From: Halorubrum kocurii JCM 14978
GTDB taxonomy: Archaea; Halobacteriota; Halobacteria; Halobacteriales; Haloferacaceae
Reading direction: 5' to 3'
Length of the DNA stretch: 64,000 bases
NCBI RefSeq assembly: GCF_000337355.1
Contig: NZ_AOJH01000037.1
Span: forward strand, 1 to 64,000
Positions within the stretch are counted from its first letter, which is position 1; each line of letters opens with the position of its first letter. The notes under the pieces were generated by a model that ran no database searches, was not told the origin of the DNA, and was given only the letters and a program-made list of their open reading frames with translations. Of the stretch, positions 42,515 through 63,829 are shown piece by piece. Position numbers and translations under genes: made by a program.

Positions 42515-43204
42515 ATGAGCAACAAAAGTGCGGTCATTCTGGTGTCCGGCGGGATGGATAGTGCGACAGCTGTGTACGAAGCAATGGAACAGGGGTACGA
42601 GCCGTACTTCCTCCACACCTCATACGGGCAGCGCACGGAAGACAAAGAGTACGAGTGCGCACAGGCGCTTGCTGAGAAGGTTGATGCGGCTGACTTTCTC
42701 CATATCGAGACGGGGCACCTCTCGCAGATTGGGGCATCGAGTCTGACCGACGAAGAGATGGATGTGGCTGACGCGGATATGGAAAGCGACGAAATTCCGA
42801 CGTCGTACGTCCCCTTCCGGAACGCGAATCTGTTGTCGATGGCGACGTCGTACGCGGAAGCGACTGAGTCGGAGGCGATATTTATCGGTGCGCACTCCGA
42901 GGATTTCTCTGGGTATCCCGACTGTCGCCCGGCCTTTTTCGACGCCTTTCAGAACGTGATCGACGTCGGGACAAAACCGGAGACGGAGATCGAGTTGAAA
43001 GCGCCATTCGTCGAGTGGTCGAAAACGGAGATCGCGGAGCGTGGGTTGGAGCTTGGTGTGCCGTACGAGATGACGTGGTCGTGTTACCGTGACGAGGAGC
43101 CAGCGTGTGGGACGTGTGATGCGTGTGCGTTCCGGCTTGAGGCATTCCGGAATGCTGGGTCACGCGATCCGATCGAGTACGCTGAGCGGCCGGAGTTCTC
43201 GTAA
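42515..43204 (+). CDS. queC: 7-cyano-7-deazaguanine (preQ0) synthase
   Basis: 229 residues. PP-loop S-G-G-M-D-S at about 10-15 binds ATP; V-P-F-R-N and G-A-H-S-E-D-F-S-G-Y-P-D-C-R are QueC signatures; the zinc site is built by S-C-Y-R with C-G-T-C-D-A-C near the C-terminus. QueC makes preQ0 from 7-carboxy-7-deazaguanine and ammonia. It is the only complete queC in the window; its 3' end is repeated at 53166-53439 and 63709-63810. The intact gene therefore seems to be the site at which two modules were added downstream. Confidence 0.93.
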   Translation: MSNKSAVILVSGGMDSATAVYEAMEQGYEPYFLHTSYGQRTEDKEYECAQALAEKVDAADFLHIETGHLSQIGASSLTDEEMDVADADMESDEIPTSYVPFRNANLLSMATSYAEATESEAIFIGAHSEDFSGYPDCRPAFFDAFQNVIDVGTKPETEIELKAPFVEWSKTEIAERGLELGVPYEMTWSCYRDEEPACGTCDACAFRLEAFRNAGSRDPIEYAERPEFS

Positions 43205-43404: not shown

Positions 43405-43573
43405 CCTGACAGTTAATCCGGTACACTACATTAGTGTTCGGTACAATTGCCGGTCGACCCTACTGAGTCAAAATATACCCTCTTCTGACTGCTTGAAATG
43501 GCTCGTGAACGGATAGGCGCACATCATATTTCGTTATGTACGACAATTAGACAACAAAACACTTTTCGAGAGT

Positions 43574-43581
43574 GGAGGGTG
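43574..43581 (+). promoter_or_regulatory. Ribosome binding site of the Argonaute gene
   Basis: GGAGGGTG lies nine bases before the ATG at 43591. It decides for this start over the upstream in-frame ATG at 43498, which has no such site. Confidence 0.6.
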
Positions 43582-43590
43582 CTATTGACT

Positions 43591-45828
43591 ATGTCTCAAG
43601 ATTCTCGTTCAACAGAGGTTGAACGTCAGGCCGAAATTCAGCCAGGCACGTATCTGTTGAACGGGCGTGGGGAAATCCAGTTAGATGAAGTCGATGCGTT
43701 CCAATATGATTTGAAGGTTTCAGGAGGAGTCGAGCAGTATTGGGATCGGGAACAGTTCACGTCTTCTGCTGCATACTATTTAGATCAGGAGCACGGGTCG
43801 CCTGTGGCTGAAATAGGGAAGATGAATGTCCTCTCAAAGACGGATCTTTCGAGATCAGTTCGTGTTTGGCAGCGGAATGTGACGCCGATTAACCGTCAGA
43901 GTGTTACTCTTACTGCAGCACAACCGGAGGACCGAGAAAAGATCAAAAGTTTCGTTCAGTCGTGTTTCAAGCGTGCTGTACCAACTGAGAAGTACTCCTT
44001 CCGATTTCTCAATAAGATTGTACGTGATGAACCGGAGTTCACGACTGGGTCAGAAGGGTTCTCCGCCCATCCGAAACACGACGTGAAGATTCAGGTGACT
44101 GCAGATGGTAACGTGTTGGTTCATGTCGATTCTGGGTTCTCAATTCGGAGTAATTCGACGCTTGACGAGATTTATTCTGAGCAAGATAATCCGTACGGGA
44201 AGCGGGTCGCCCATGATCCGGAACGGTACGGTACGCAGGGGCAAGGAACTCTTCGAGGATGGAGTGATTATCGGTACACCGATCATATCTCAGACGCGGG
44301 GTCGTCCGTTAATGAGATGCACAAAGGCGTTGCTGATGAAGAGTGGAGACAGCGGCTTGCTGAAGAGAATCCGCGTCTCTTGAAAGTCGAATACGGTAAT
44401 AAAACTCGGCGACAGGCTCCTCATTTCCTCAGGCTATCTCCACGCATAGAGCAGGTTCAGGATCAGGACCGGGAGTTCTACTCTAGATTTAATTCCCGAA
44501 GTGCGATGATGCCTGATGAGCGGTTTGAGCTCTCAAAGGAATTCCTCCAAAATGTGAGTCGCTTACCGGTCTTGGATATGGAACTTGAACCAGGGCCGGT
44601 AAATTCATCGTACGAATTGCTGGAGATGCGTGAGGAAAACCGGTTGGTTTTCGGTGGAAAGCAGCGGGCGCGTGATCCTGGTTCGGGCCTTCGTGAGAAT
44701 GGAGTCTATCAATCTCCGTCGCAGTACAGGCTTGGCGTGCTCACCCCAGAACGGTGGGGGGAGAAGGCTTCGGAGTTGATTCCACTCATTGTTAGTGGGC
44801 TGAATGACCTGTCCGCGTCAGCAGGTGTTCGTGCGTATGGATATGAATTGGGAGACGTCTCAAATTACACGCCTGTTGTACAAGATTTACACGAAGAAAC
44901 TGACGCTGTGTTGGCAGTCGTGCCGAATAAGGGAGTAGCTGAGGACTTCGGGATCGATGATCCGTACAAGGAGTTGAAGCGCACGCTTCTGCGAAAAGGT
45001 ATTCCGACGCAGATGATGCAGAAGTCAACTGTTGATGAAATTGTGGGTCAGAAGGCAGGCATAGGGAATGACAAGTTCTTGAATGCGTTGAGTGCCGTCG
45101 TTGCGAAGGTTGGTGGGACTCCGTGGCAGATCGATTCGCTGCCGGGAAAGACAGACGCCTTCATGGGTCTCGATGTGACGTACGATGAATCTTCAGAACA
45201 ACACGCTGGGGCAAGTGCCAGCGTCGTGTTAGCCGATGGGACTACGTTTGCGGCGGAATCTACCACGCAGCAAGGTGGTGAGAAGTTTTCAGCGCGTCAC
45301 GTAGAACAGTTTGTTCGAGATCTCGTATTCGATTTCGCAGGTGAACAGGGGCGCGATATTGACCGCTTGTGTATAATGCGGGATGGAAAGATCTCTGAAG
45401 ATATTGACGCTGTTCGGGAGGGATTATCCGGCATAGAGGCAGAGATTGATATCGTAGGTATTCGGAAATCGGGCCAGCCTCGAATTGCCGAATTCGACGG
45501 GACTCGGTTCCGTATCGCAGAGAAAGGTGTTGGGTTCGTCGATGCTGATCGATCTCAATCAATTATCCATGCCTTCGGAAAGCCGGAGATTCATGATGAC
45601 AACCCTGTGGGAACACCGCGAACGTTCCGCTTGACGAAAGATTCCGGTCCGACAGACGTTGAAACGTTGACTCGGCAGGCGTACTGGCTATCTGAGATTC
45701 ACTTTGGTAGTCCGGTCCGTAGCCCGAGATTGCCAGTGCCGATCGAGTACGCTGACATGGCTGCTGAGTACGTGCGAGAGGAGTATGTCTCACCGGGAAC
45801 GGTGATTGAAGGGCCGGCGTACATCTAA
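43591..45828 (+). CDS. Long prokaryotic Argonaute with complete DEDD tetrad
   Basis: 745 residues, full length for a long pAgo (N, PAZ, MID, PIWI). In the MID domain, P-Y-K-E-L-K-R, I-P-T-Q-M-M-Q and V-V-A-K-V-G-G give the Y-K...Q...K set that binds the 5' phosphate of the guide. PIWI tetrad: D528 (M-G-L-D-V-T), E564 (G-G-E-K), D598 (M-R-D-G) and D722 (P-I-E-Y-A-D, aligned with the fourth residue in other Argonautes). So it should be able to cut a target, probably DNA, guided by short DNA, like the haloarchaeal NgAgo-type proteins. The gene is convergent with addA (38 bases between stops). Pairing with an AddAB nuclease is suggestive because RecBCD/AddAB products can serve as pAgo guides in bacteria. 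Confidence 0.92.
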   Translation: MSQDSRSTEVERQAEIQPGTYLLNGRGEIQLDEVDAFQYDLKVSGGVEQYWDREQFTSSAAYYLDQEHGSPVAEIGKMNVLSKTDLSRSVRVWQRNVTPINRQSVTLTAAQPEDREKIKSFVQSCFKRAVPTEKYSFRFLNKIVRDEPEFTTGSEGFSAHPKHDVKIQVTADGNVLVHVDSGFSIRSNSTLDEIYSEQDNPYGKRVAHDPERYGTQGQGTLRGWSDYRYTDHISDAGSSVNEMHKGVADEEWRQRLAEENPRLLKVEYGNKTRRQAPHFLRLSPRIEQVQDQDREFYSRFNSRSAMMPDERFELSKEFLQNVSRLPVLDMELEPGPVNSSYELLEMREENRLVFGGKQRARDPGSGLRENGVYQSPSQYRLGVLTPERWGEKASELIPLIVSGLNDLSASAGVRAYGYELGDVSNYTPVVQDLHEETDAVLAVVPNKGVAEDFGIDDPYKELKRTLLRKGIPTQMMQKSTVDEIVGQKAGIGNDKFLNALSAVVAKVGGTPWQIDSLPGKTDAFMGLDVTYDESSEQHAGASASVVLADGTTFAAESTTQQGGEKFSARHVEQFVRDLVFDFAGEQGRDIDRLCIMRDGKISEDIDAVREGLSGIEAEIDIVGIRKSGQPRIAEFDGTRFRIAEKGVGFVDADRSQSIIHAFGKPEIHDDNPVGTPRTFRLTKDSGPTDVETLTRQAYWLSEIHFGSPVRSPRLPVPIEYADMAAEYVREEYVSPGTVIEGPAYI

Positions 45829-45866
45829 TTACACAGCGAGTGCGTCAGCACTCGAGGCCAGTGCTT

Positions 45867-49739: not shown

Positions 49740-52700
49740 TTGGTGTCCTCCGTGTCGAGGCCGGGAGCGTAGTGCGGCGTGTTCGTGTCGGTGAGCTGCT
49801 GGTGAACGGCGTGTCTGCGGTGGTGGCGGACGTCGCACGCGTCCCGATACGGACAGTACTCGCACCCGGCGGTATCGGGGTCGAGGACGGTTGGGTGAAA
49901 CGCCCCGTCGTCGACGGCGGCCGAGATGCGGGCGATCCGGTCGGGAACAGTCTCATGAAGGAATTCGTTGAACTCGTTGCGCGTGTCGAACGTGAGCGAT
50001 CGGTAGCGTCGCAACGGGTCCGGGTCGTCTGTTCCCCAGTACGCGTGGGCGGCATCTTCGTCACCGCCGATCGTGCCGTCGTGCGGGGAGACAGAACTCT
50101 TCGGAGTCACTCGGTAGTAGGACGCTCCGACGGGTTCGCCGTCGAGCGCGTCTTCGGCCATCAATAAGTACGCGGGGAGCTGAAAGGCGTACCCGTCGAT
50201 CGTATCGCTCTCGCTGTTCGTGCTCCCTGTCTTGTAGTCTACGCCGACGAGTCCGCCGTCTGATGTGATATCGAGCCGGTCGATTTTTCCACGGATCTCC
50301 ACGTCTGTCCCGGGAACGCGGACAGGGCCGTCCGAGATCACTTCGGGGCCGGGCTCGTCAGGGGTGAGTCCGACGTGTGCCTCGAAGTACGTCGGCGTTA
50401 CGTCCCGGGGAGCGAGTTCGACCTCGGCACGGAGGAACCGTTTGAACAGTCCGGCAGCGGCGACTGAGTCTCCGTATTGGTTGTCCGGAACGTCCAGCCC
50501 GTCGAATAGAGCCGCGAGCCACGCGTCGTGGAACGCGGTGTCACGTGCGTCCAACTCCACGAGCCGCTCAGCCGCAACCGCGTACAATTTCGTTTCTGCG
50601 TCCGACAGTGTATCCCCGGTGACGTTCTGGTGGCCTGCCGCCCGCCAGTCCCGGTAGAAGCGCTCGAGCACGTCGTGGACGTACGTGCCGACGTCGAGCG
50701 CGTCTGGCTCCAACGTGACCTCGTCATCCGGTTCGATGTCGAGGACGTTTCCGAGGTAATACTTGAACCCGCAGTCGGCGAACGTTTCGAGGCGGCTCGG
50801 ACTGTACGGTTTTCCGCCATCTCGCAAGTCAGAGATGACTTCTGGGTCGACGTGCCCATCGTACTTACCGACTGTATCAGCTGCGCGTGCGGCAGCAACT
50901 TGTACGCCGCCTGCGAGCCGTTCAGGCGCGTTCGCACCCGGTATATCGATGTCGTACGTGTCAGCGTTCTCCACGACCTCCCTCGGTGTGACGGCGTCCG
51001 TGTCGATGGCAGTGGCGAGCGATCGATGGACGTCTGCGTACGTCGCTGGTCCCGCGCGGTTGCTGTCACCACGTTTGACCTCCTGTTCGGTGACGCGTTC
51101 AAGTTCTAGCACCGTGTCGGCGATGACGTACGGGTCACCATTCGCATCGCGCTCAGGCGCGGTGAACGTCACCGTCGCGTCGGACGCAAGCAACTGCGCG
51201 AACACGTACCGCGTCCCTGAGACAGGGTCCGCAGCTTCGAAGTCCGAATGCGCGTCGTTGAGCGGCCGCGCGAACGCCAAGCGGCGCGGGGGCGACGGCG
51301 TGTGTTCGGTCGTGAGTCCCGGTACGATCACGTGATCCGTGTCGTTCCCGACCGCCTCGACCGGTGAGCACACGCGGACGCTGTTCGACTCCCGACCGAT
51401 CGTCGTGTCAATCGAGATTTGTTCGAGCGCGCGTCGAAGGGCTTCAACAGTCGTGTCCGCGTCGACAGTCCGCCGACTTGATGGCCGGAGATCAGTCAGT
51501 GATGCACACACGTCGGCCACGGCCTCTATCGCCTGTTGCTCCCGAGCCGTCACGTGCCGTGAAAACTCGACGCCATCCGTGAGGTTCGTCCCGTCGTCAC
51601 TCGTCGGGATGCCAAGAGCGGCGAACAGCTCCTGACGGGCAGCGTCGAAGTCATCGTTGGTTGCGAACTTGTCACACGCCTCAACGGCGTCTCGGACCAG
51701 GTTCTCGTCCGTCGCCTCCACGTGGTCAGCGAGCACAGAGACCTGTGTCGACTCCAATAACTCTGCGGTCCGAAGCACCCGACGAGTAGATCCTCGCTGA
51801 CCGGGATACACGAGTGGGTTCGACAGCAGTCTGACCAGCGGAGCCTGTCGGTCTGGCTCCGTCCCGAGATCCATCACCGCTTCGAACAGCTTCCCAGTCG
51901 ACGTAGCGAAAAATGACTGCGACGAATGGAACGATACCGGCACGTCCGCATCATGGAGTCCATCCGTGAGCCGGTCGCCGTACGTTTCTGTATCGAACGG
52001 CGCGACAGCGATCGCTTCGGGATTGACACCCTCCCCGATTAGCGACCGCACCTCGCTCACGACGGCGCGCACCTCTCGCTGAATCGTTGCGTGCGTCTCG
52101 ACTGCCACGCCGGAGCCGACCGTGACTGACTCGTCGCCTCCGTCGACGTGCTGGTACAGAGATGCAGCCGCGGTTTCCCGCAATGTAGGCGATTCCGAGT
52201 GTTCGACAGTCGCTGTCGACGTGAACCCAAGATCGGCGTACCACTCATAGATGCGGCGGACGGCGTCGTCCGCGCCGTTCGGCTCATCGCTTTCAGTTAC
52301 GCGCGGTACCACGACCCCAGTGTCGAACGTGTCAGCAAGTAGTTCAACGAGATTGCGTTCCAATGGCGAGATCGTTTGGAACGAACCGATGACCACTACG
52401 TCGGTCGCGGCGAGTTCGGACCCCACGAGCTGCTGTCCGGCGTTGAGGACGTGACGGAACCGTTCACTCCGGAACGTCTTCGCGTTGCCGAGCCCGTCAC
52501 GACGTGCCTCGTGAACCAGCCTGACGAACTGCGACAACACGCGCCCGAGATTTGGAAGCCCTTCCCGGGTGAGACGCTGCTTGACTTCATCCGCTGTGAT
52601 CGCGTCCGCAAACTCCAGCAGCGTCAAGAGTTCTTCAGCCTGTTCGATGAGCCCAACGGCAGGGTCATTCTCGGTATATAACGGGTGGGTTGGATCTTCA

Positions 52701-53002
52701 ATGCGAGCGAGCGCTTCCTCGACGATCCACCGACGCTCCGCGTCCGTGACGAACGTCGACGGTCCGGCATACGTATCTGCCTCGTACAGCGCGTCGACGA
52801 GCGTCCGAAACCCGTCAAGCTGAAGTTCTACACGTGACCCGTGCGCATTCCACTGATCACCGATAACTGTATCGTCCACCGCCGGCGGTTCAAGATACAA
52901 CACCGAGTGCGGCACGCCCGTAGCCCGGTCACCAGCCCACCGGAGTGCGGTACCCCGACTGCGGGAGGGCGTCGATCGAGAGAACATCCGGCAGGTCGTC
53001 AT
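49736..53002 (-). CDS. addB: AddB-like nuclease subunit with 4Fe-4S site
   Basis: 1088 residues. The C-terminal nuclease is clear: C-G-F-K-Y-Y as first cluster cysteine, E-I-R-G-K-I-D-R-L-D and G-V-D-Y-K-T-G as PD-(D/E)XK core, and C-E-Y-C-P-Y-R-D-A-C with the other three cysteines of the iron-sulphur staple. The helicase-like N-terminal part has lost a standard Walker A, in line with AddB of several groups. It forms an operon with addA (4-base overlap). The start at 53002 lies 163 bases from the second queC fragment, so the operon borders a module junction. Confidence 0.85.
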   Translation of the reverse strand: MTTCRMFSRSTPSRSRGTALRWAGDRATGVPHSVLYLEPPAVDDTVIGDQWNAHGSRVELQLDGFRTLVDALYEADTYAGPSTFVTDAERRWIVEEALARIEDPTHPLYTENDPAVGLIEQAEELLTLLEFADAITADEVKQRLTREGLPNLGRVLSQFVRLVHEARRDGLGNAKTFRSERFRHVLNAGQQLVGSELAATDVVVIGSFQTISPLERNLVELLADTFDTGVVVPRVTESDEPNGADDAVRRIYEWYADLGFTSTATVEHSESPTLRETAAASLYQHVDGGDESVTVGSGVAVETHATIQREVRAVVSEVRSLIGEGVNPEAIAVAPFDTETYGDRLTDGLHDADVPVSFHSSQSFFATSTGKLFEAVMDLGTEPDRQAPLVRLLSNPLVYPGQRGSTRRVLRTAELLESTQVSVLADHVEATDENLVRDAVEACDKFATNDDFDAARQELFAALGIPTSDDGTNLTDGVEFSRHVTAREQQAIEAVADVCASLTDLRPSSRRTVDADTTVEALRRALEQISIDTTIGRESNSVRVCSPVEAVGNDTDHVIVPGLTTEHTPSPPRRLAFARPLNDAHSDFEAADPVSGTRYVFAQLLASDATVTFTAPERDANGDPYVIADTVLELERVTEQEVKRGDSNRAGPATYADVHRSLATAIDTDAVTPREVVENADTYDIDIPGANAPERLAGGVQVAAARAADTVGKYDGHVDPEVISDLRDGGKPYSPSRLETFADCGFKYYLGNVLDIEPDDEVTLEPDALDVGTYVHDVLERFYRDWRAAGHQNVTGDTLSDAETKLYAVAAERLVELDARDTAFHDAWLAALFDGLDVPDNQYGDSVAAAGLFKRFLRAEVELAPRDVTPTYFEAHVGLTPDEPGPEVISDGPVRVPGTDVEIRGKIDRLDITSDGGLVGVDYKTGSTNSESDTIDGYAFQLPAYLLMAEDALDGEPVGASYYRVTPKSSVSPHDGTIGGDEDAAHAYWGTDDPDPLRRYRSLTFDTRNEFNEFLHETVPDRIARISAAVDDGAFHPTVLDPDTAGCEYCPYRDACDVRHHRRHAVHQQLTDTNTPHYAPGLDTEDTK

Positions 53003-53165: not shown

Positions 53166-53439
53166 GGCCTTTTTCGATGCCTTTCAGAACGTCATTGATG
53201 TCGGGACAAAACCGGAGACAGAGATTGAACTGAAAGCGCCGTTCGTTGAGTGGTCGAAAACGGAAATCGCGGAGCGCGGGTTGGAGCTCGGCGTGCCGTA
53301 CAAGATGACGTGGTCGTGTTACCGCGATGAGGAGCCGGCGTGTGGAACGTGTGATGCGTGTGCCTTCCGGCTTGAAGCGTTCCGGAACGCTGGGTCACGC
53401 GATCCGATCGGGTATGCTGAGCGGCCGGAGTTCTCGTAA
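53166..53439 (+). pseudogene. queC 3'-end fragment, copy 2
   Basis: Matches 42931-43204 of intact queC without gaps and ends at the same stop. It encodes the last 90 residues, with all zinc cysteines. By eye there are about 25 base differences, and apart from the junction residue only two change an amino acid (Glu to Lys in P-Y-K-M, Glu to Gly in I-G-Y). The pattern is that of a gene under selection, so this is the end of a diverged, once functional queC, not a local copy that has decayed. A GTG/ATG upstream opens a longer frame (from 53035) but the added part is unrelated to QueC. Confidence 0.85.
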
Positions 53440-53492
53440 GCGAAATCGGGAATATATCGGTATGAATTGTGTTAATCGCTCAGATGTTTTCC

Positions 53493-53867
53493 CTATTTTC
53501 CCCAGACTGTACCGATACCAAGCTTTTCTCCGAGGAGTTTTAGCATCAAAATCAGAAATCCCAGAATCAAAATTGTTCCAAGATGTCCAAATATCGGATG
53601 TACAAGATCAGAGGTGATATCTGGCGAAATAAACAGCAATACTAACCCAGCAAGAACGAATCCTGCTGTGTAGGTTTTTGTCCAATATTTGGCAGAGATA
53701 TAGATACTCAACAGCATAATTCCCGTTAGCAATAAAAAGACAAATCCGGCTACGACGTCACCCCAAGCGGTTTGCGCGTAGACAACTCCCAGAAAAACGG
53801 CAATTGATGGTAACGCGATCTCGAAAATAGCCCGAACAATTCCGTTCGTTATTGTTGGTGTTCCCAT
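53493..53867 (-). CDS. Small four-helix membrane protein
   Basis: 124 residues with four hydrophobic segments: about 11-30 (A-I-F-E-I-A-L-P-S-I-A-V-F-L), 38-58 (V-A-G-F-V-F-L-L-L-T-G), 67-83 (T-A-G-F-V-L-A-G-L-V-L-L-F-I) and 93-112 (G-T-I-L-I-L-G-F-L-I-L). No known family. It is the first gene of the low-GC module after the queC fragment, divergent from the FtsZ-AAA gene by 218 bases. It could anchor that protein, but nothing in the sequence proves a link. Confidence 0.6.
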   Translation of the reverse strand: MGTPTITNGIVRAIFEIALPSIAVFLGVVYAQTAWGDVVAGFVFLLLTGIMLLSIYISAKYWTKTYTAGFVLAGLVLLFISPDITSDLVHPIFGHLGTILILGFLILMLKLLGEKLGIGTVWGK

Positions 53868-54084
53868 TTTATAATGTCACACTCTATTTCTCATAGGTCT
53901 ACTAAGTCCACTGTGGATGAGATATAATTAATTCTACGGATTCTAGTTGGTCCGATAATATCCGAGCCATACACGAAAGGCTAGCCTAGTGTCAGCTTCC
54001 ATCTTATACCTTTTATTAACTAATATTCAAGAGTACATTCTCCGATTTGGCAAAGGTTAGGTGCTCAGGTTAGTTAGATTAGGT

Positions 54085-56946
54085 ATGGATTTGGGCGTTC
54101 TCGGACTTGGAAGTGGAGGAAACAGAATTGTGGATTCAATGATACAAAAAGAGTTCACTGAGGGAAGTCATGTTATTTATGAAGCGATTGGAATCGACTC
54201 ATCGAAATCAGATATCGCAGGACTCGAGTATATCTCTAAATCCAAGCGGGTTACAGTAGGTCTTTCTGAGGTCGGTGGACACGGTGTTGGTTCCAATCTC
54301 GAAATGGGATCAGATATCGTTAGTAATGAAGAACGGGAAATAGCATCGGCGATTAGTAATTCAATGTTAGAAGAAGTCGACGCATATCTTGTCGTAACCT
54401 GTGCTGGTGGTGGAATGGCTGGGGGTGCCTCAACGCTGATTGATTTATTCCGTGCAATCGACACGAAGCCAGTGTACGCAGCTGTCGTACTTCCTCATAT
54501 GGGTGAAGGGGGACTGTGTGTTCTTAACGCGTGTCTAAATGTAAACACAATATATCCGAGTGCAGATGGCGTGTTTCTTTTTGACAACGGGCACTACTAT
54601 GACAATGAATCGGACAATTTTCGGCGTGAAGATGCCACTGAGGCATTCTCAAGTCAACTTTTGGGGCTATTCTCATTTATAAATACAGAGTCAAAGGCTA
54701 CTGGCAACGCATTGCTCCATGATGAGATCAATACGATGCTTGGGTCCCCCGGAATTGCGGCAGTTGGATGTGCTTCCACTACCGTTACCACTGGTTCCCA
54801 AGGTACAATTTCACGGTTCTTGGGGGAGGAGGCCAATATTGATCCTGATGAAGCAACTGAAGAACTAACTTCACTCACCAAAGCAGCAGCTGATGACGTT
54901 GGTGTATTAACAGCCTATGACAACGTCCCAACAGCCATATTTTTCATATCAGGTCCGCAGGAGTATTTGAACTCCGACGCGATCAGACTAGCGGAACAGA
55001 AAGTGGTAGATCCCAACATTACAGACGTCACAATTAGAACCACCGTTAATGACTCATCTACGCTCGAAGTTGTGGTCGGATTTGCAGGTATCACAGAGGC
55101 TCCGATACTTAATTGGCTAGAGCAGATTTATGACGAATCCGGTGAAAAATCCGGTACAACTGATTCTCGACCCCCCTTCCGCATTACTAATCACTCAAGC
55201 AATACTACTGAAAATCAGGATGATACAACGGGCTCAGTCCAACAACCAAAGGATGATACACCGACCACATCCGATGAGACAGTTACCCAAACAGAGGGTG
55301 CCGAACACACAGAACAATCTATTCCTGACCCATCAGATGTCCAAGGGGTTGATCGACCACCAGAGAGATCATTTGACGATGTAATTGGACTCTCTGATGT
55401 CAAAGAACGCATCAAAGAGGATGTACTGATCCCCGCGAGGGACGACCGATTCGATGAGTACGGAATCGGATCTGTAACAGGTGTGTTATTCCATGGACCG
55501 CCAGGAACAGGCAAAACGTACGTTGCAAAGGCAACCGCTGGTGAACTAGGTTACAATTATATGGAGGTTGATCCCTCCGATATCAAAAGTCAGTATGTCG
55601 GTGGTGGATCTGAGAATGTGAACGAGCTATTTGAGCGTGCGAAAACAGCCCAACCGACATTAATTTTTATTGATGAGATTGACTCTATCGCAGGCGAACG
55701 TTCCGAAACAGGTGGTATGACACAATCAGAGCGTAGCATGATAAATGAATTACTTGGAGAACTCTCTAAACTTAATGAGAGCGAAGATGACGTTATTGTT
55801 GTTGCTGCGACGAACACGCTCGACGATGTCGATACTGCAATTAAGCGGTCAGGGCGGTTTGATACGACAATTCATATCGGAGCTCCGGACTTCGAGACAC
55901 GGTATGGTATTCTTCAATCAACGTTAGACGATGGTCCACCGAATGAACTCACCAATATCGATTCCGATGTCATCCGATCGAAGACCGACGGACTTGTCAG
56001 TAGCGACATGGCTGAGATCGGGAAATCGTCAATACGAAAGGCTCTTGCAGCATCTCAAGACGGATCAACGCCTGTTGTCAGAGTAGAATATTTACTCGAA
56101 AGTATCGAAGAGATAGTTTCGAAGCGCCAACAAGATAATTCGGCGGCAAAAATGATTCAGGAGCCTCCGGAAATCGATTTCAATGACGTTGCTGGCATGG
56201 ATGGTTTAAAACGCAAACTCAGTCAAACAATCATTGACCCCGCAGAAAACCCGGAAAAATATGAACAATACGGATTAGACATTACAAACGGAGTGTTATT
56301 ATACGGTCCTCCGGGCACCGGTAAAACGTATTTAAGCAAAGCTGTTGCTGGTGAGCTAGAATTCAATCTCATCAGTATTACTGCGTCTGATGTTGTAAGT
56401 AAATGGATCGGAGAAGGAACTCAGAATGTTGGTGAGTTGTTCGAGACTGCGCTTGACAACCAGCCATCTATCGTGTTCATTGACGAGATCGACGCTATTG
56501 CAAGCCAACGGGGTGGTGGAGATAGAATGCATCAAGATCAAAAACAGATTGTCAACGAGATTCTTACTGGGATGTCGGAGGTGCAGGGAGAGGATGTAGT
56601 AGTTATTGCTGCGACAAACCTTCGTTCTTCGCTCGATGATGCGCTTACACGCTCGGGACGATTTGACGAAACGATCGAAGTCCCACCACCAGACGATGAG
56701 GCACGCATAGAGATGCTCAAATATCACTTATCAGATCGACCACTTGCAACTGATAAAATAAACTGGGAAGAAATCAAGATGGTGAGCAGAAAGGATGCAA
56801 ATGGTCATCCATACGTCGCTTCCGACATGAAACTCATCACAGAAACAGCTGCACGGGTGGCTATGAATCAAGGTTCGAAAATCACACAGGACCATCTTTG
56901 GCAGGCGATCGAAGATACTGACGCTAGCCATTCAACATATAATTGA
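54085..56946 (+). CDS. Tubulin/FtsZ-like GTPase fused to two AAA+ ATPase domains
   Basis: 953 residues from the ATG at 54085 (GTG 54061 is eight codons earlier). Residues 1 to about 340 look like the tubulin/FtsZ superfamily: L-G-L-G-S-G-G-N-R (6-14) as first nucleotide loop and C-A-G-G-G-M-A-G-G-A-S (106-116) as the tubulin signature, then a second domain of similar length to FtsZ. A Thr/Asp/Ser-rich linker (about 350-430) leads to two Cdc48-type AAA+ domains: Walker A G-P-P-G-T-G-K-T at 471-478 and 741-748, F-I-D-E-I-D in both, and R-S-G-R-F-D arginine-finger segments in both. I know of no characterised protein with this order. A GTP-driven polymer that recruits or contains an unfoldase is the obvious idea. 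DNA is low in GC. Confidence 0.8.
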   Translation: MDLGVLGLGSGGNRIVDSMIQKEFTEGSHVIYEAIGIDSSKSDIAGLEYISKSKRVTVGLSEVGGHGVGSNLEMGSDIVSNEEREIASAISNSMLEEVDAYLVVTCAGGGMAGGASTLIDLFRAIDTKPVYAAVVLPHMGEGGLCVLNACLNVNTIYPSADGVFLFDNGHYYDNESDNFRREDATEAFSSQLLGLFSFINTESKATGNALLHDEINTMLGSPGIAAVGCASTTVTTGSQGTISRFLGEEANIDPDEATEELTSLTKAAADDVGVLTAYDNVPTAIFFISGPQEYLNSDAIRLAEQKVVDPNITDVTIRTTVNDSSTLEVVVGFAGITEAPILNWLEQIYDESGEKSGTTDSRPPFRITNHSSNTTENQDDTTGSVQQPKDDTPTTSDETVTQTEGAEHTEQSIPDPSDVQGVDRPPERSFDDVIGLSDVKERIKEDVLIPARDDRFDEYGIGSVTGVLFHGPPGTGKTYVAKATAGELGYNYMEVDPSDIKSQYVGGGSENVNELFERAKTAQPTLIFIDEIDSIAGERSETGGMTQSERSMINELLGELSKLNESEDDVIVVAATNTLDDVDTAIKRSGRFDTTIHIGAPDFETRYGILQSTLDDGPPNELTNIDSDVIRSKTDGLVSSDMAEIGKSSIRKALAASQDGSTPVVRVEYLLESIEEIVSKRQQDNSAAKMIQEPPEIDFNDVAGMDGLKRKLSQTIIDPAENPEKYEQYGLDITNGVLLYGPPGTGKTYLSKAVAGELEFNLISITASDVVSKWIGEGTQNVGELFETALDNQPSIVFIDEIDAIASQRGGGDRMHQDQKQIVNEILTGMSEVQGEDVVVIAATNLRSSLDDALTRSGRFDETIEVPPPDDEARIEMLKYHLSDRPLATDKINWEEIKMVSRKDANGHPYVASDMKLITETAARVAMNQGSKITQDHLWQAIEDTDASHSTYN

Positions 56947-57004
56947 GAATTTAAATATCATATCCTCTGACTGTAGTTGAATATCACCACGAATTGTTGC
57001 GCTA

Positions 57005-57382
57005 TCAAGCAATATTGAGAACAAAATATCGGCGTGCTGCCATCATATCTCCACGGATCGTCGCGTCTCGCAAATCCATTGGGTGAGTTGTTTGCCCTCG
57101 GAGAATGTGATAAGACAGATCTAATGTAGGTAGTGTGACACCAACAAAACGATTTGGAGAATTGTTGTGAGCACTTTCCGATTCAGTTGGTGAATAAATA
57201 CTATGTAAGAATGTCTCAGTGAGGTCTTCCTGCCGCCGAGCAGCATGCGTTGGTGAGATGTCATAAAGGCAATACTCTCCATCAGAAACAGCAGTGCGCG
57301 GACAATGCCACGTATCGTCTAGATAGGGGAATAGAGTGTCATCAGAAACATCATGAGTATAATTACAGGGCGTAGAAGCCAT
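57005..57382 (-). CDS. Probable truncated pentapeptide-repeat protein
   Basis: 125 residues. The N-terminus (C-N-Y-T-H-D-V ... W-H-C-P-R-T-A ... Y-C-L-Y-D-I-S) is like the cysteine-containing head of haloarchaeal pentapeptide-repeat proteins. Only one or two repeat-like units (M-D-L-R-D-A-T-I-R-G-D) appear before the ORF ends in an unrelated tail, so the repeat domain seems to be lost. It may be a gene remnant. Family match is from memory. Confidence 0.45.
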   Translation of the reverse strand: MASTPCNYTHDVSDDTLFPYLDDTWHCPRTAVSDGEYCLYDISPTHAARRQEDLTETFLHSIYSPTESESAHNNSPNRFVGVTLPTLDLSYHILRGQTTHPMDLRDATIRGDMMAARRYFVLNIA

Positions 57383-57477
57383 CTATCTTGTCTATTGATG
57401 GGTCAACGAGTGTCTAGTCGTTAATCACGGAGAGATTCAAATAAGCTTGACACCAGTCTCAGATTAAACAATACAAA

Positions 57478-57936
57478 TCACTCTGAGTCTGTATGGCTGT
57501 CTCGAATCTCATGTTCATACTCGTCGACTGTAACACGAGACCCCTCTCGGGCGGGGTCTACCGGCGGATCTTCTGAGAGAAAAAACGCATCGTACCTCAT
57601 ATTTGGGCTAATATCGAGCGTTTCGCAGATCGCTTTGTACGTCTGATCTGAGTCGATCCACGCGACCATTGCCACACCGCGAATAGACGGTGAATCAGAC
57701 ATCGCTTGCCCCATTGACCCCGGAACATGAATTTCGTATTGGGGACCGTTCCCTGAGAGGTTCACTCGAACACACGCTTGTTCACTCTCCGGCGCGAACC
57801 GAAAACGGACATCATCAGCGTTGAGCTCTAATTCCGGATGTCGCTCAATAATTGACCACGTTGCTTTCCGGCGTTTCTCTTCGATTGAGTCCCCGGCGTA
57901 ATCGGCATCGGACTCTTCATAACACAGTTCACACAT
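57478..57936 (-). CDS. Unknown protein, small gene of AAA+ cluster
   Basis: 152 residues. The N-terminus M-C-E-L-C-Y-E-E has a C-x-x-C that may bind metal without a visible second pair. The rest is mixed alpha/beta with an acidic end. Not recognised. It lies between the two AAA+ genes on the strand of the second one, about 100 bases downstream of the small gene at 58038-58379. Confidence 0.55.
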   Translation of the reverse strand: MCELCYEESDADYAGDSIEEKRRKATWSIIERHPELELNADDVRFRFAPESEQACVRVNLSGNGPQYEIHVPGSMGQAMSDSPSIRGVAMVAWIDSDQTYKAICETLDISPNMRYDAFFLSEDPPVDPAREGSRVTVDEYEHEIRDSHTDSE

Positions 57937-58037
57937 ACAACCTTTCCTACGTTAGAACACACTCAACGATATTCATTCGCCTGGCCTAGCTGCGTCTTGA
58001 TAAAATCGAGCCGTGGTGAACTCAGCGAATCGGATTG

Positions 58038-58379
58038 TCACTCCTCATTCGACTCCGGACTGTCATCGACTAATCGCCAGATGAACTCGTCGTCATTCGC
58101 TTCAGTGATCTTCAGTCCAAGTGCATCTGCAAAAGTGTCTAACCACACTTTGTTTCTCTCACGACCTACTAAGAGACTCACTCGCCCCTCCCGGTCTAAG
58201 TCTACGCGTGTATCCATCCCAAATTCCTCAAAGAATCCTCGCTGGGCGGCAAACCAGTTGAGGGCGTCACGAACCGAACAGAACTCTGGTATCACCTGAC
58301 CCATGTCGCTCGATTCAGGGGGCGATTCGATGACCTCCTCGACAACTCCGTCCTGATTTTCGGTCTCGTCCATGTCCAC
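58038..58379 (-). CDS. Unknown acidic protein next to AAA+ gene
   Basis: 113 residues, start ATG at 58379, two bases after the stop of the double-AAA+ gene on the same strand, so the two are probably co-translated. After an acidic N-terminal 30 residues there is a compact domain (F-C-S-V-R-D-A-L-N-W-F-A-A-Q-R-G-F to F-I-W-R-L-V). No known family. It may be an adaptor or substrate of the AAA+ protein. Confidence 0.6.
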   Translation of the reverse strand: MDMDETENQDGVVEEVIESPPESSDMGQVIPEFCSVRDALNWFAAQRGFFEEFGMDTRVDLDREGRVSLLVGRERNKVWLDTFADALGLKITEANDDEFIWRLVDDSPESNEE

Positions 58380-58381
58380 GA

Positions 58382-60499
58382 CTAGTAATACCCGACACCG
58401 ATGTCAGTGGGGTCATCTGTCTCGTGAGCTGAAGCCAAACTTGGATCAACGGTGTGAATCGCTTGCTCAAGATGCTGTTGTGCGATCAACTCGATGTCAT
58501 CAGGCTGTGCTTCGGACATTGCGTACCGGGCGGCCTCATCGACGATCTTTGCCAGATCAGCTGCAACATACGGTGTCCCACCCGATGTTGTCTCTGTGAG
58601 GTGTTGAATCTCGTCCCAGTCGATTTCGGACGTATCCACCGGCCGGTCCGCCAGTTGCGTCTTGAGAATCTTCACACGGGCCGTCCCATCAGGCGGCGGT
58701 ATTTCCACGCGTTCGCCGAGACGACCGGAGCGGGTGAGCGCGTCATCAATAATATCTGGCCGGTTCGTCGTCCCGATGACGAACACATCTGAATTGTCGA
58801 GAGTAGAAATCTGCGTCAAGAGTTCATTTACTGCTTGCTCTTCGGTGTTGCTCATTTGAATGCCACCGCGTGAACTCGCAATGGCATCGATCTCGTCGAT
58901 GAACACGATCGCCGGCGAGACGTCTTTCGCCTTCTCGAATAGATCTTGAATGTTCTGTGCAGCCTCACCGACCCATTTGCTTACGATGTCGGATGCGGTA
59001 ATCGGAAGGAACGAGCACCCGGCCTCTCCGGCGAGTGCTCTTGAAATATACGTCTTCCCCGTACCTGGTGGTCCGTACAATAGTACGCCGTTCGAAATCT
59101 CTAACCCGTACTGATCATACAGCTCTGGGTTCGTCAGGGGGTCGAGCAAGGTTTCTGTCAGTCGCTGTTTTGTCTCGTCCATTCCGCCGACCGCTGAGAA
59201 ATCGATATCCGGTGTTTCGGTCAGGAACTCACCGGCAGTGTCAGCCGACTGTTTTTCGGTCACACCAGCCACCTGCTCCATGATTAAATCGGCAGACACG
59301 CATGGAACCTCGCCGCGGGCATTGCGACGGACACTCGCACGTTTCGATTTATCGACTACCTCAACGATATCGCTTGAAGACAGGTTCGTCGTTGCCTCAA
59401 CGAACGCGTCGATAAACGTTGTATCCGTCCAAACCGGGTCGACGTCCCCATCAAACGATCTGAGTTCAGTTTCGAGGATCGCCAGCCGCGTCATCGCATC
59501 TGGCATTCCGATTTTGATCCGCGTGTCAAATCTCCCCGTCCGTTTCAACGCGGCATCGACTTGGTCTGGTCGGTTCGTTGCCCCGATTACGACCACGTCA
59601 GTATCCCGCTCGTTAATATCGCCGACGTGCCGGAGGAGTTGATTTACTGCTTCGGCACGTCCTTGGTGGAGACCAGAGTCCCGCTCCGGAGCAATACTAT
59701 CGAGTTCGTCGAAAAACACGACACACGGCTGGTGCTCTTCTGCGAGTTCGAACACCTCCGCGATATTCTCTTGCGTCTGTCCGAACTCACTATCTCTAAG
59801 CAACCCGACGTCGACTTCGAAAAAGTTGTATGCTAATTCACCGGCTAGCGCAGTTGCGACATGCGTTTTCCCGGTTCCTGGCGGGCCGAATAACAGTAAT
59901 CCGTTCGCTTTGCCGATGTCGTACTCGTCGAACTGTGGGTCGGTGAACGGTCTAATAATCTCCTCGCGGAGCTCTTGTTTCACGGCATGGAGCCCAGCGA
60001 TCTCGCTGAAGTCTAGATCTGGGGGCGGGTCGATGTACTCGTTGTCTGGGGCAACCACAGCGTCGGGGTCGGAGTGAGGTGTCGATTGGGTTCCCGGGAC
60101 AGGGTCGGGCTGGTTATCTGCGGCTGGGGAGGGCTTCACGTACTCGAAACGTGGAGTCCGCTGTGCGAGCTCGTTGAATGCAGTCGATGGTGACTTTCCG
60201 GGCCAGTATCGAATCGTTCGTTGTTCGCCTGCTGCTAACTCGATGCGTATCTGAAACTCATTGGTTTCCGCTTGAGCTCCCCAGGTGACGAATTCCTTGT
60301 CCGTCGCTTTTGTTGACGCGATATCGCACGTGACGGGAAATTCTTCGACAATACCAGCGACCTTGTCGGTCTCATTCCGGTTCTCGAAAGTCAAACGGAT
60401 ACAGCGTGGGTAGAGGCCGTCTCGCTTTTCGATCGATTTGTCGATCCAAATTCCACTTTGAACCGTCTCTACTGATAGTGCTTCGTCGTTGCTTCCCAT
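58382..60499 (-). CDS. Cdc48-like double AAA+ ATPase with unusual N-domain
   Basis: 705 residues. The N-terminal 120 residues are beta-rich and unlike the Cdc48 N-domain; an Asp/Pro/Ser linker follows (about 122-160). D1: Walker A F-G-P-P-G-T-G-K-T (204-212), Walker B F-F-D-E-L-D (262-267), T-G-R-F-D. D2: Walker A Y-G-P-P-G-T-G-K-T (475-483), F-I-D-E-I-D, S-G-R-L-G where the second arginine-finger region has Leu-Gly instead of Phe-Asp. D2 is close to the D2 of the FtsZ-AAA fusion (both have I-T-A-S-D-x-V-S-K-W). It probably unfolds or remodels proteins as a hexamer, possibly mixed with or regulating the fusion protein. First gene of an operon with 58379-58038. Confidence 0.85.
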   Translation of the reverse strand: MGSNDEALSVETVQSGIWIDKSIEKRDGLYPRCIRLTFENRNETDKVAGIVEEFPVTCDIASTKATDKEFVTWGAQAETNEFQIRIELAAGEQRTIRYWPGKSPSTAFNELAQRTPRFEYVKPSPAADNQPDPVPGTQSTPHSDPDAVVAPDNEYIDPPPDLDFSEIAGLHAVKQELREEIIRPFTDPQFDEYDIGKANGLLLFGPPGTGKTHVATALAGELAYNFFEVDVGLLRDSEFGQTQENIAEVFELAEEHQPCVVFFDELDSIAPERDSGLHQGRAEAVNQLLRHVGDINERDTDVVVIGATNRPDQVDAALKRTGRFDTRIKIGMPDAMTRLAILETELRSFDGDVDPVWTDTTFIDAFVEATTNLSSSDIVEVVDKSKRASVRRNARGEVPCVSADLIMEQVAGVTEKQSADTAGEFLTETPDIDFSAVGGMDETKQRLTETLLDPLTNPELYDQYGLEISNGVLLYGPPGTGKTYISRALAGEAGCSFLPITASDIVSKWVGEAAQNIQDLFEKAKDVSPAIVFIDEIDAIASSRGGIQMSNTEEQAVNELLTQISTLDNSDVFVIGTTNRPDIIDDALTRSGRLGERVEIPPPDGTARVKILKTQLADRPVDTSEIDWDEIQHLTETTSGGTPYVAADLAKIVDEAARYAMSEAQPDDIELIAQQHLEQAIHTVDPSLASAHETDDPTDIGVGYY

Positions 60500-60779
60500 C
60501 CGGTACCGAGTATCAACCGCTACACCAACATAATTCTACGGCACATGTCAAATCGTAAATCACCGAAATTGACCGTTCTAATACCACCGTGGCTCTCGGG
60601 GTCAAAATAATGCCGAGCAAGACAGAGAGGGCATTCTGTTAGATCTTTTCAGATACCCCGACAGTCTCCCGACGTTTTGAGGAGACTGTTCCACTCACAC
60701 TGATTTTGTTTCTCACTTTCCCAGGCCTCCACACAGTTTTTAACACGCAGTAAGAGTGTCAAGTAGACGGTGACAACGA

Positions 60780-61553
60780 GTGGGTGTTGACAAATTTGAC
60801 CTGTCTTCGCTAGTGGCTGCGGCTGAGCCTCGTGAATATATCATCACCTCAAAACACTCGGCTTTTGCTGATACTGATTCGGAGACTACTCAAATCCGGT
60901 GTGCGATCTGTGGGACACCGGATACAGACGCCCACAATTTGGCGATCGGATACGCAAATCCTGTCTGTAAGGCGTGTGATGAGTTAGCCGTTAACGAGGA
61001 AGGGACTGAACCGTGGACGGGATGGAAACCGGGGAACGAGCCTGACTCAGAGCCAGGCGTGATTCAGCTATCACCGGATCAAGGCGAAAACCCGGTTTAT
61101 ATTGCGGGCGTGAAATGCTGGCGTCGGTATCGATTTGGCGGGCACGTCACTCGACGTGACGCGTTTGATTGTGATTCCCTTAAGCAATTTCAGCAGAAAC
61201 ATCGGATAGACGGAGAATGGATTCACGCGTTTAATTCACCGAAGCCGAATGGTGTTTCGCTCTCGAAGGAAGTGTATCAGCAACTTCGGGATCGTGAACA
61301 AGAGGTACAGAGTCTACGTGATGAATTGGACCGTATTATTGAAGAAGGCAGTACAGAACTACGCTTCGAAGATATCCAACAGCGGGTACAAACTATTGGT
61401 GGCAAACTTCCACGCCAAGTTGAAAAAGAAGTGGATGGTGGGGAAGTGTCCCTGAAAGAGTATGCAACTAGCGTTAGACGTGCGCTAGCGTGGACTGAAC
61501 ATAACCGTCAAGATTTCCTTGGTCTTCACAGACGGTATTTTGAATCGGTATAA
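60780..61553 (+). CDS. Zinc-finger protein with coiled coil, unknown
   Basis: 257 residues with a GTG start at 60780. C-A-I-C-G-T-P-D at about 41-48 and C-K-A-C at about 66-69 form a zinc finger of the C-x-x-C...C-x-x-C type. A middle region with R-R-Y-R-F-G-G-H-V-T-R-R follows, then a charged coiled coil at about 165-190 (L-R-D-R-E-Q-E-V-Q-S-L-R-D-E-L). Not recognised. It is convergent with the next two genes and divergent from the Cdc48-like gene (280 bases between starts). Confidence 0.6.
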   Translation: MGVDKFDLSSLVAAAEPREYIITSKHSAFADTDSETTQIRCAICGTPDTDAHNLAIGYANPVCKACDELAVNEEGTEPWTGWKPGNEPDSEPGVIQLSPDQGENPVYIAGVKCWRRYRFGGHVTRRDAFDCDSLKQFQQKHRIDGEWIHAFNSPKPNGVSLSKEVYQQLRDREQEVQSLRDELDRIIEEGSTELRFEDIQQRVQTIGGKLPRQVEKEVDGGEVSLKEYATSVRRALAWTEHNRQDFLGLHRRYFESV

Positions 61554-61645
61554 ACCGAATCTGTCCCTTGCTGTAGGGTACTATCTGTTTATTTTCTCGG
61601 ACCGGTTAGTTTCCACCTGACGCTCACGATCTTGGTGGAGTACCG

Positions 61646-62194
61646 TCATAGGTCATCCCCCCAGTTGAACGACGGTGTCTCCTCGTACACGTCTTCTCTG
61701 AGGTGTTCAAACAGTTTCGCGTATGTTAGTCCGAGGCCCCTTGCCACAGCCCATGGCCTGTGGTTATGCGCAAGGAGGTACAACCCCATCGCGCCGAGAC
61801 CACGACTTGCGACACGCACCGGAATTCGCGGTCGAGCCTGGCCATGGACCCAGTACATTGCGGCGGTTTCGACGTCGTCACGATATCGCAGCGGGCCAAC
61901 GAGCTCCTCTATTTGAGCCCAATCTGACGCACGGCTGCTCGCCCGGTCTGGCTTCCCGCAGAACGAAATGACACCGTCAAAGTCGCGGAGGTCGTCAGGA
62001 GTCAATTCGACTGTGTCCCCAGCAGAAGCGCCGATTGTCGCCACTGAGTCTCGCTTGAGGTCTGGGCATTGTTCCGTTGTTGCCGGCCACTTCGTTCCTT
62101 TCGGGGGCTGTTTTGTCGGCACGTAGTACACGCTAGTGGACGCGGCGAGCACAGTGCCATACGCGGCAGTAACCATGACGTTCATCTTATTCAT
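61646..62194 (-). CDS. Unknown protein paired with a membrane protein
   Basis: 182 residues. The first 25 residues are moderately hydrophobic (V-M-V-T-A-A-Y-G-T-V-L-A-A-S-T-S-V-Y-Y-V) and could be a membrane anchor. The remainder is soluble with S-R-G-L-G-A-M-G-L-Y-L-L-A-H-N near the end. No known motif. It overlaps the upstream membrane protein gene by eight bases. Confidence 0.55.
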   Translation of the reverse strand: MNKMNVMVTAAYGTVLAASTSVYYVPTKQPPKGTKWPATTEQCPDLKRDSVATIGASAGDTVELTPDDLRDFDGVISFCGKPDRASSRASDWAQIEELVGPLRYRDDVETAAMYWVHGQARPRIPVRVASRGLGAMGLYLLAHNHRPWAVARGLGLTYAKLFEHLREDVYEETPSFNWGDDL

Positions 62195-62999: not shown

Positions 63000-63283
63000 T
63001 GCCGGCCCTCCGTCGTACGGGTGACCTCAAGCTGGCTCGGAAGTAACGAATAGACTAGGAAGTACGCAGTTGCCGTTACGGCGGCGGTTGGAGACGATTC
63101 CACACCGGTAGGCATGGTGGAATGCACCATTGAGATATGCCGACCGACGGCAACTCGCGGGGCTTACAGCCAAGATGTGACTCTTGTAATATACAGTAGT
63201 ACTGGCAGATTATATTAGTCTTCTGTCGGATCATCTGTTGGGCGTCACCAAGAACACTGTCACGACAACGCAGTCGTCTCTCG

Positions 63284-63700
63284 TACATCATCGAGAACAA
63301 GATCGATGATTATCAGGTAGACCCGGCGGTTCGTGACACGCCGATGCTCGTCGCGGTTGACGAGGCGCACAATTACTTAGCGAGTGCGAGCAGCCTCCGC
63401 GAAGAATACATTCTCCGACGGGCGCGCGTCGCTGTCAAGCAGGGCCGGAAGTACAAGCTTGGACTGTGTCTCATCACACAGAATCCGGATGACGTTGACG
63501 ACGACGTGATCAAGCAAATCAATACGAACATTTTCCTCGGACTGAAGGCTGAGGTCGTCGATGACGTGCCGTCCATCCCTTCCGAGTTCAAGAAAGATCT
63601 TCCGAACTTCGGCAAAGGACAAGCTGTCGTGAAAGCACCGGATGTAGAGGCCGTTGAAGTGAAAGGTCTCCCGTACTGTGTCACCCGACACGGTAACTGA
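63284..63700 (+). pseudogene. C-terminal remnant of a HerA-like ATPase
   Basis: From about 63284 the frame reads S-Y-I-I-E-N-K, then L-V-A-V-D-E-A-H-N (Walker B), then R-A-R-V-A-V-K-Q-G-R-K-Y-K-L-G-L-C-L-I-T-Q-N-P (sensor and arginine region), as in HerA/DUF87 DNA-pumping ATPases. The N-terminal half with Walker A is missing; upstream sequence in the same frame does not resemble it. The stop (63698-63700) comes eight bases before the third queC fragment, so the remnant ends at a module junction. Confidence 0.7.
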
Positions 63701-63708
63701 TGATTCCG

Positions 63709-63829
63709 GCGTGTGGGACGTGCGATGCCTGTGCGTTCCGGCTTGAGGCGTTTCGGAATGCTGGGTCACGCGATCCGGTCGGGTATGCTGAGCGGCCGGA
63801 GTTTTCGTAACCCACGAGTCGATTTTACT
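63709..63829. repeat. queC 3'-end repeat, copy 3
   Basis: Matches 43103-43223 with roughly ten differences and no gaps. It encodes the last 33 residues of QueC to the same stop (63808-63810) and continues 19 bases past it. Unlike copy 2 it shares the sequence after the stop with the intact gene, so it may be the original chromosomal end that was displaced. Confidence 0.85.

What the first reader, a model, noticed from the sequence alone, without database searches (positions are those of the whole stretch)
54085..56946. Tubulin/FtsZ-like GTPase fused to a tandem Cdc48-type AAA+ unfoldase
One reading frame joins a tubulin-type nucleotide fold (GLGSGGN and AGGGMAGGAS loops) to two intact AAA+ domains through a long disordered linker. 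I know of no studied protein that combines a GTP polymer with a protein-remodelling motor. It may build a filament that recruits or threads substrates, for defence, plasmid segregation or membrane work.
Basis: partly seen in the sequence, partly recalled or inferred. Interest (0 to 1): 0.85.

Follow-up and report, generated by a model that had tools for sequence, protein, structure and literature searches.

The report
Tubulin-like CetZ fused to tandem unfoldase
In two salt-loving Halorubrum archaea, a mobile stretch of DNA next to antiviral genes carries one intact gene that joins a tubulin-like (CetZ) domain to a double-ring protein-unfolding motor, a combination found in no other genome or paper I searched; it probably uses the tubulin-like part to choose what the motor pulls apart.

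Summary
ORF 54085-56946 (+, 953 aa) is a CetZ (archaeal tubulin-superfamily) domain (residues 1-352; PDB 4b46, E=1e-40, whole domain), a Thr/Asp-rich linker and two complete AAA+ domains. It is not an assembly join: an independently assembled, collinear 953-aa copy (94% identical) exists in Halorubrum coriense, with selective constraint in every segment, linker included (dN/dS 0.08-0.36). Only these two species had it: 2 of 52 Halorubrum genomes and 2 of 391 sampled class genomes. I found no published mention in the library held.

The phosphate-binding T4 loop is altered (GGGTGSGG in canonical CetZs, GGGM-AGG here, in both species), so a normal GTP polymer cannot be assumed. The AAA engine is not canonical Cdc48: it belongs to a rare haloarchaeal tandem-AAA clade whose known members carry unrelated N-terminal domains.

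The gene lies in a low-GC cassette (53440-63810) bounded by 105-bp copies of the queC 3' end, beside a cassette with pAgo and AddAB-like genes.

Best explanation: a conflict-associated tandem unfoldase whose CetZ domain supplies specificity. The architecture is shown; target, polymerisation and defence role are inferred.

The parts
54085..56946 (+). CetZ-AAA-AAA fusion gene, 953 aa (possible GTG start at 54061)
   Evidence: collinear homologue in H. coriense
54085..55140 (+). CetZ (tubulin/FtsZ superfamily) domain, residues 1-352; T4 loop altered at residues 108-114 (GGGM-AGG), T7 Glu E214 retained
55141..55356 (+). low-complexity Thr/Asp/Ser-rich linker, residues 353-424
55357..56064 (+). AAA+ domain D1 (about residues 425-660): Walker A 471-478, FIDEID 528-533, aromatic pore-loop motif YVG 504-506
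56065..56943 (+). AAA+ domain D2 (about residues 661-953): Walker A 741-748, FIDEID 798-803, aromatic pore-loop motif WIG 774-776
53493..53867 (-). 124-aa protein with four predicted TM segments, divergently transcribed from the fusion and conserved in H. coriense; some relatives elsewhere lie beside RM or CBASS genes
58382..60499 (-). second tandem-AAA protein (705 aa) of the same AAA clade with an unidentified N-terminal domain; internally deleted in H. coriense, so not needed by the fusion there
57478..57936 (-). 152-aa protein of unknown function in the cassette, conserved in H. coriense
58038..58379 (-). 113-aa acidic protein of unknown function, immediately downstream of the second tandem-AAA gene
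60780..61553 (+). 257-aa protein with a CxxC...CxxC motif, function unknown, conserved in H. coriense
53335..53439 (+). 105-bp duplication of the queC 3' end: left boundary of the cassette
63706..63810 (+). 105-bp duplication of the queC 3' end (91% identical to the left copy): right boundary of the cassette
42515..43204 (+). complete queC, source of the duplicated 3' ends
43498..45828 (+). prokaryotic Argonaute in the preceding cassette (context)

Best explanation
A horizontally exchanged, defence- or conflict-associated unfoldase. SHOWN: one polypeptide-coding frame carries a divergent CetZ domain, a low-complexity linker and two complete AAA+ modules; the same tandem-AAA engine occurs with unrelated N-terminal domains in other haloarchaea; the gene is under purifying selection and sits in a repeat-bounded cassette next to Argonaute/nuclease genes. 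INFERRED: D1/D2 form a two-tier hexameric ring that uses ATP and aromatic pore-loop residues to pull polypeptides through its channel; six CetZ domains on flexible tethers serve as the recognition module, binding or co-assembling with tubulin-superfamily polymers (host CetZ/FtsZ, or an invader's protein), so that the ring extracts or unfolds subunits or attached proteins. It would work like a katanin- or ClpX/FtsZ-type remodeller with its tubulin-binding adaptor built in. The likely biological use is response to mobile elements or viruses, by blocking them or by arresting the host.
For: All catalytic AAA motifs and aromatic pore-loop motifs are intact in both domains. The fusion's D1 pairs with the D1s, and its D2 with the D2s, of the neighbour and of G149's protein (supports 0.974 and 0.956); these and both domains of G277 group apart from the genome's three Cdc48-like proteins (0.992). 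N-terminal domains differ across the clade: CetZ; unidentified (window 58382-60499 and L061); HEAT repeats (L062). The N-domain changes much faster than D1 (dN 0.057 vs 0.009; dN/dS 0.36 vs 0.08), as expected of a recognition domain on a fixed engine. The degenerate T4 loop fits binding or co-assembly better than autonomous GTP cycling. Context: a pAgo + AddAB-like cassette adjoins and DpdJ/DpdK- and DruE-like genes lie upstream; the gene's GC is 45-47% against 54% for the window; the fusion half of the cassette is 93.5% identical between species against 87.9% for the que genes. Precedents (abstracts): AAA+ proteins ZapE and ClpXP remodel FtsZ (PMC8503651, PMC5256927); PcdA, co-opted from a phage restriction system, acts in S. 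aureus division-plane selection (PMC10602043).
Against: No direct evidence for any substrate, for polymer binding or for antiviral activity. Defence context is association only. The cassette order differs between species and pAgo is not adjacent in H. coriense. Only two sequences exist, so constraint estimates are coarse. A degenerate T4 loop does not prove loss of GTPase activity. The C terminus (TYN) is only a weak resemblance to a proteasome-docking HbYX motif.
Confidence: 0.42

Rival explanations
1. One reading: the CetZ domain itself polymerises with GTP into a filament that carries AAA rings along its length and threads substrates.
For: T1 glycines, T3 (GHGVG), T6 (FDN) and the T7 Glu corresponding to E218 of CetZ1 are retained; whole CetZ domain including the C-terminal subdomain is present.
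Against: T4 signature GGGTGSGG is replaced by GGGM-AGG with a deletion in both species; a hexameric AAA ring would impose its own geometry, so the flexible linker would have to bridge two assemblies.
Confidence: 0.2
2. Housekeeping cytoskeleton remodeller: a lineage-specific factor that regulates the host's own CetZ/FtsZ during shape change or division, carried in a mobile cassette without a defence role.
For: The same genome has seven other tubulin-superfamily loci, including CetZ and FtsZ genes; AAA+ factors that regulate FtsZ are known (PMC8503651, PMC5256927).
Against: Present in only 2 of 52 Halorubrum genomes, low GC, repeat-bounded cassette beside pAgo/AddAB-like genes.
Confidence: 0.2
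3. A gene of the mobile element itself (partition or maintenance, analogous to TubZ), not of host defence.
For: Mobile-looking cassette; tubulin-superfamily TubZ proteins segregate plasmids (established knowledge); arCOG01308 CDC48-family ATPases are listed as virus/plasmid-associated in archaeal dark-matter islands (PMC4158269).
Against: No relative in the phage collection covering most of the query, none in viral contigs; plasmid matches to the CetZ part are under 32% identical, and those opened are ordinary-length CetZ genes; no partner or centromere array recognised.
Confidence: 0.15
4. Assembly chimera, frameshift join or decaying gene.
For: None beyond the unusual architecture.
Against: Independent collinear copy in H. 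coriense and constraint in all segments.
Confidence: 0.03

Closest known systems
CetZ family (H. volcanii CetZ1/CetZ2, PDB 4b46/4b45)
   Same: Whole two-subdomain CetZ fold by sequence; Pfam Tubulin and CetZ_C above cut-off; groups with CetZs apart from FtsZ in the tree; T7 Glu, T3 and T6 motifs kept
   Different: About 30% identity, very long stem branch, altered T4 loop, fused to tandem AAA+
Cdc48/p97/VAT tandem AAA+ unfoldases
   Same: Two complete type-II AAA modules with Walker, sensor, arginine and aromatic pore-loop motifs
   Different: CDC48 model 347 bits vs cut-off 803; no CDC48 N-domain; AAA domains fall in a separate haloarchaeal clade from the genome's own Cdc48-like proteins
Haloarchaeal island tandem-AAA proteins (window 58382-60499; L061; L062)
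   Same: Same D1/D2 clade and layout: variable N-terminal domain + D1 + D2
   Different: N-terminal domains are unidentified (first two) or membrane/HEAT (L062) instead of CetZ
AAA+ regulators of FtsZ/tubulin (ClpXP, ZapE, katanin/spastin) and the restriction-derived PcdA
   Same: AAA+ machine acting with tubulin-superfamily polymers or cell division
   Different: There the tubulin homologue is a separate partner; here a tubulin homologue is part of the AAA+ chain; whether the function is shared is untested
FtsZl-1/FtsZl-2 families (Makarova and Koonin 2010, PMC2875224)
   Same: Divergent prokaryotic FtsZ-tubulin superfamily members in conserved contexts
   Different: Those associate with vWA and GTPase genes; no AAA+ fusion was mentioned in the passages searched

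Membership tests
CetZ | Tubulin GTPase domain and CetZ_C domain above curated cut-offs | tested here: met
   52.7 vs 33 bits; 38.7 vs 21.6 bits
CetZ | Groups with CetZ rather than FtsZ in a tree | tested here: met
   support 98/100 for the CetZ group excluding FtsZ; long stem branch noted, so exact position inside CetZ is unsure
CetZ | Canonical T4 loop GGGTGSG | tested here: not met
   GGGM-AGG in both species; hence 'CetZ-derived domain', not a standard CetZ
CetZ | T7 catalytic Glu (E218 of CetZ1) | tested here: met
   E214
CetZ | GTP-dependent polymerisation | not testable with these tools
   needs biochemistry
CDC48/p97 | Two complete AAA+ modules | tested here: met
CDC48/p97 | CDC48 family model above its curated cut-off (TIGR01243) | tested here: not met
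   346.9 vs 802.65 bits
CDC48/p97 | CDC48 N-terminal domain | tested here: not met
   the N-terminal 352 residues are CetZ and the remainder is a short low-complexity linker
CDC48/p97 | Ortholog-level clustering with Cdc48 D1/D2 | tested here: not met
   fusion, neighbour, L061 and L062 form a separate group
Known anti-phage defence system (PADLOC-DB 2.0) | Specific match of the fusion to a defence model over its length | tested here: not met
   only generic AAA matches (IetA, TRIP13)
FtsH/PAN | Family models above cut-off | tested here: not met
   FtsH 375 vs 600; PAN 369 vs 500

The most novel reading that the evidence does not exclude
A new conflict system in which one polypeptide combines a tubulin-family nucleotide switch with a tandem AAA+ unfoldase, so that assembly on a filament (host or invader) directly licenses protein unfolding; the CetZ case is one of several interchangeable sensors on an uncharacterised haloarchaeal tandem-AAA engine.
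Probability: 0.25. Interest if true: 0.88.

Novelty: new variant of a known kind. Interest (0 to 1): 0.62.

Why it matters
Known AAA+ machines meet tubulin-family polymers as separate partners (ClpX-FtsZ, ZapE, katanin, spastin). A natural covalent fusion gives a ready-made test of how a tubulin-like domain can target or gate an unfoldase, and of what CetZ domains bind. It also points to an uncharacterised haloarchaeal tandem-AAA family with swapped N-terminal domains, and to the queC 3' end as a recurrent island-building site in Halorubrum.

Tried and rejected
Assembly join, frameshift and pseudogene: rejected by the collinear H. coriense copy and constraint. Structure prediction of residues 1-352 from a two-row alignment failed (pLDDT 34) and is not used; fold assignment rests on sequence comparison with solved CetZ structures. 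No fold search was run because of the poor model. Viral contigs: the full-length protein, the tandem-AAA alignment and the CetZ alignment gave no fused relative (the AAA alignment returned many AAA loci, none opened further). Phages: only partial AAA matches, none covering 80% of the query. Plasmids: CetZ genes below 32% identity (eight opened). A required pair with the second tandem-AAA gene is unlikely: in H. coriense that gene is internally deleted. Proteasome docking through the C-terminal TYN: considered, weak.

Full report
OBSERVATION. The window is from a Halorubrum genome (inferred: its same-genus relative G357 matches the H. coriense contig). ORF 54085-56946 (+) encodes 953 aa from the ATG; a GTG 24 bases upstream is also in frame. 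Pfam gives Tubulin at 5-173, CetZ_C at 214-347 and AAA in two stretches. A phmmer search of PDB sequences with residues 1-372 aligns residues 1-352 with CetZ 4b46 (E=1.1e-40) and 5-245 with CetZ 4b45 (E=8e-22); FtsZs are far weaker. The N-terminal domain is therefore CetZ, not merely tubulin-like. Residues 353-424 form a low-complexity linker. D1 and D2 each have GPPGTGKT, FIDEID, a TN sensor, SGRFD, and aromatic pore-loop motifs YVG (D1) and WIG (D2).

REALITY OF THE FUSION. H. coriense DSM 10284 has the same 953-codon frame, 94% identical. NG86 dN/dS is 0.36 (CetZ), 0.20 (linker), 0.08 (D1), 0.19 (D2), 0.24 overall; nucleotide differences by codon position are 38/21/81. The constraint on the linker and the shared frame rule out an assembly join.

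DISTRIBUTION. Full-length searches found the fusion in 2 of 52 Halorubrum genomes, the same two species among 170 family and 391 class genomes, and no further species in 295 phylum genomes. A CetZ-domain search found CetZ in 365 of 391 class genomes; in the rows listed, only these two lay in a 961-aa frame, the rest 389-615 aa (the list was truncated). A GTDB contig scan with the CetZ domain returned only H. coriense (close relatives only). Viral, phage and plasmid collections gave no fused relative. So the fusion is rare; unsampled genomes remain possible.

THE CETZ DOMAIN. Against 25 canonical CetZ rows, 75 of 193 highly conserved columns match. Retained: T1 glycines, T3 GHGVG, PxxxEG, FDN and the T7 Glu (E214, aligned with E218 of 4b46). 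Altered: T4 GGGTGSGG to GGGM-AGG, in both species; T1 GQAGGK to GSGGNR. Nucleotide binding is plausible; hydrolysis and polymerisation are not predictable. The tree places it inside CetZ, separate from FtsZ, on a very long stem; the program warned about long branches, so its exact sister group is unresolved.

THE AAA ENGINE. TIGR01243 (CDC48) scores 347 against a cut-off of 803. In a FastTree of AAA domains, the fusion's D1 groups with the D1s of the neighbouring gene (58382-60499) and of G149's protein (0.974), the D2s likewise (0.956), and with both domains of G277's protein they form a group (0.992) apart from the genome's three Cdc48-like proteins. Searches with the neighbour found the clade in only 3 of 292 genomes at E<=1e-110. 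The proteins have different N-terminal regions: CetZ; no Pfam match (neighbour, L061); membrane-like segment plus HEAT repeats (L062). The simplest reading is one tandem-AAA engine with exchangeable N-terminal specificity domains; this is an inference from four proteins.

GENOMIC SETTING. Complete queC is at 42515-43204. Copies of its last 105 bp recur at 53335-53439 and 63706-63810, with degraded copies near 65 kb. The interval 53440-63810 is therefore a cassette. Homology to H. coriense starts inside the left repeat (53330) and a segment at 65084-65900 lies after the cassette here but directly before it in H. coriense, so cassettes have been reordered. Identity of the fusion half of the cassette (93.5%) exceeds that of the que genes (87.9%), suggesting recent exchange between species. 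Sequences like the 105-bp queC end occur in 29 of 52 Halorubrum genomes, up to nine copies. The preceding segment carries a pAgo (PADLOC E=0, Piwi E=1e-14) and AddAB-like helicase/nuclease genes; upstream of queD are DpdJ/DpdK-like and DruE-like genes. The divergently transcribed four-TM gene (53493-53867) has relatives beside what reads as a type I RM operon (L063, by eye), a IIG RM and CBASS genes (L065), and near TmtA (L066); the fourth (L064) has no scored defence neighbour. This is association, not proof of defence.

MECHANISM. Shown: architecture, intact catalytic motifs, constraint, domain exchange within the AAA clade, mobile context. Inferred: hexamerisation, substrate threading, CetZ as recognition module, a tubulin-superfamily target and a role in conflict. 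Literature supports that AAA+ proteins can act on FtsZ (ZapE, PMC8503651; ClpXP, PMC5256927) and that a restriction-derived protein can work in cell division (PcdA, PMC10602043); these are abstracts. The katanin/spastin analogy is from general knowledge. Papers on CetZ diversity (PMC9856176) and FtsZ/tubulin evolution (PMC9871819) contain no mention of fusion or AAA; PMC searches for such a fusion found none. The library is incomplete.

VERDICT. It is best described as a CetZ-headed member of a rare haloarchaeal tandem-AAA family, in a repeat-bounded defence-type island. The proposed GTP polymer is unproven and the altered T4 loop argues for caution.

Noticed in passing
window 42515-43204, 53335-53439, 63706-63810; also 64904-65050 and 65786-65900 on contig C37: The queC 3' end is repeatedly duplicated and bounds exchanged cassettes; queC-end-like sequences were found in 29 of 52 Halorubrum genomes, up to nine copies in one. 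No integrase was identified for this site.
   Followed up: partly
window 43498-53002: Cassette with a prokaryotic Argonaute and two large AddAB-like helicase/nuclease genes, directly before the CetZ cassette.
   Followed up: partly
window 30711-40281: DruE-like and DpdJ/DpdK- or DrmA/DrmC-like genes directly upstream of the que operon; the system type was not resolved.
   Followed up: no
window 58382-60499; L061 8171-10633; L062 8525-10993: Rare haloarchaeal tandem-AAA clade with different N-terminal regions (unidentified, unidentified, membrane+HEAT); the gene's counterpart in H. coriense is internally deleted.
   Followed up: partly
window 53493-53867; L063 9683-10045; L065 about 9627-9953; L066 9660-10010: Small four-TM protein divergent from the fusion; relatives lie beside or near RM, CBASS or TmtA genes in other haloarchaea.
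   Followed up: partly
window 57005-57382: Short frame resembling by eye the N-terminal part of a 551-aa protein in H. coriense (L011 6847-8502); possibly a remnant.
   Followed up: no
window 63344-63700: Weak HerA_C match (E=0.00045): possible truncated HerA-like ATPase next to the right queC repeat.
   Followed up: no
G000:C79:38127-38543: A further very divergent tubulin-superfamily gene in the same genome (384-aa frame).
   Followed up: partly
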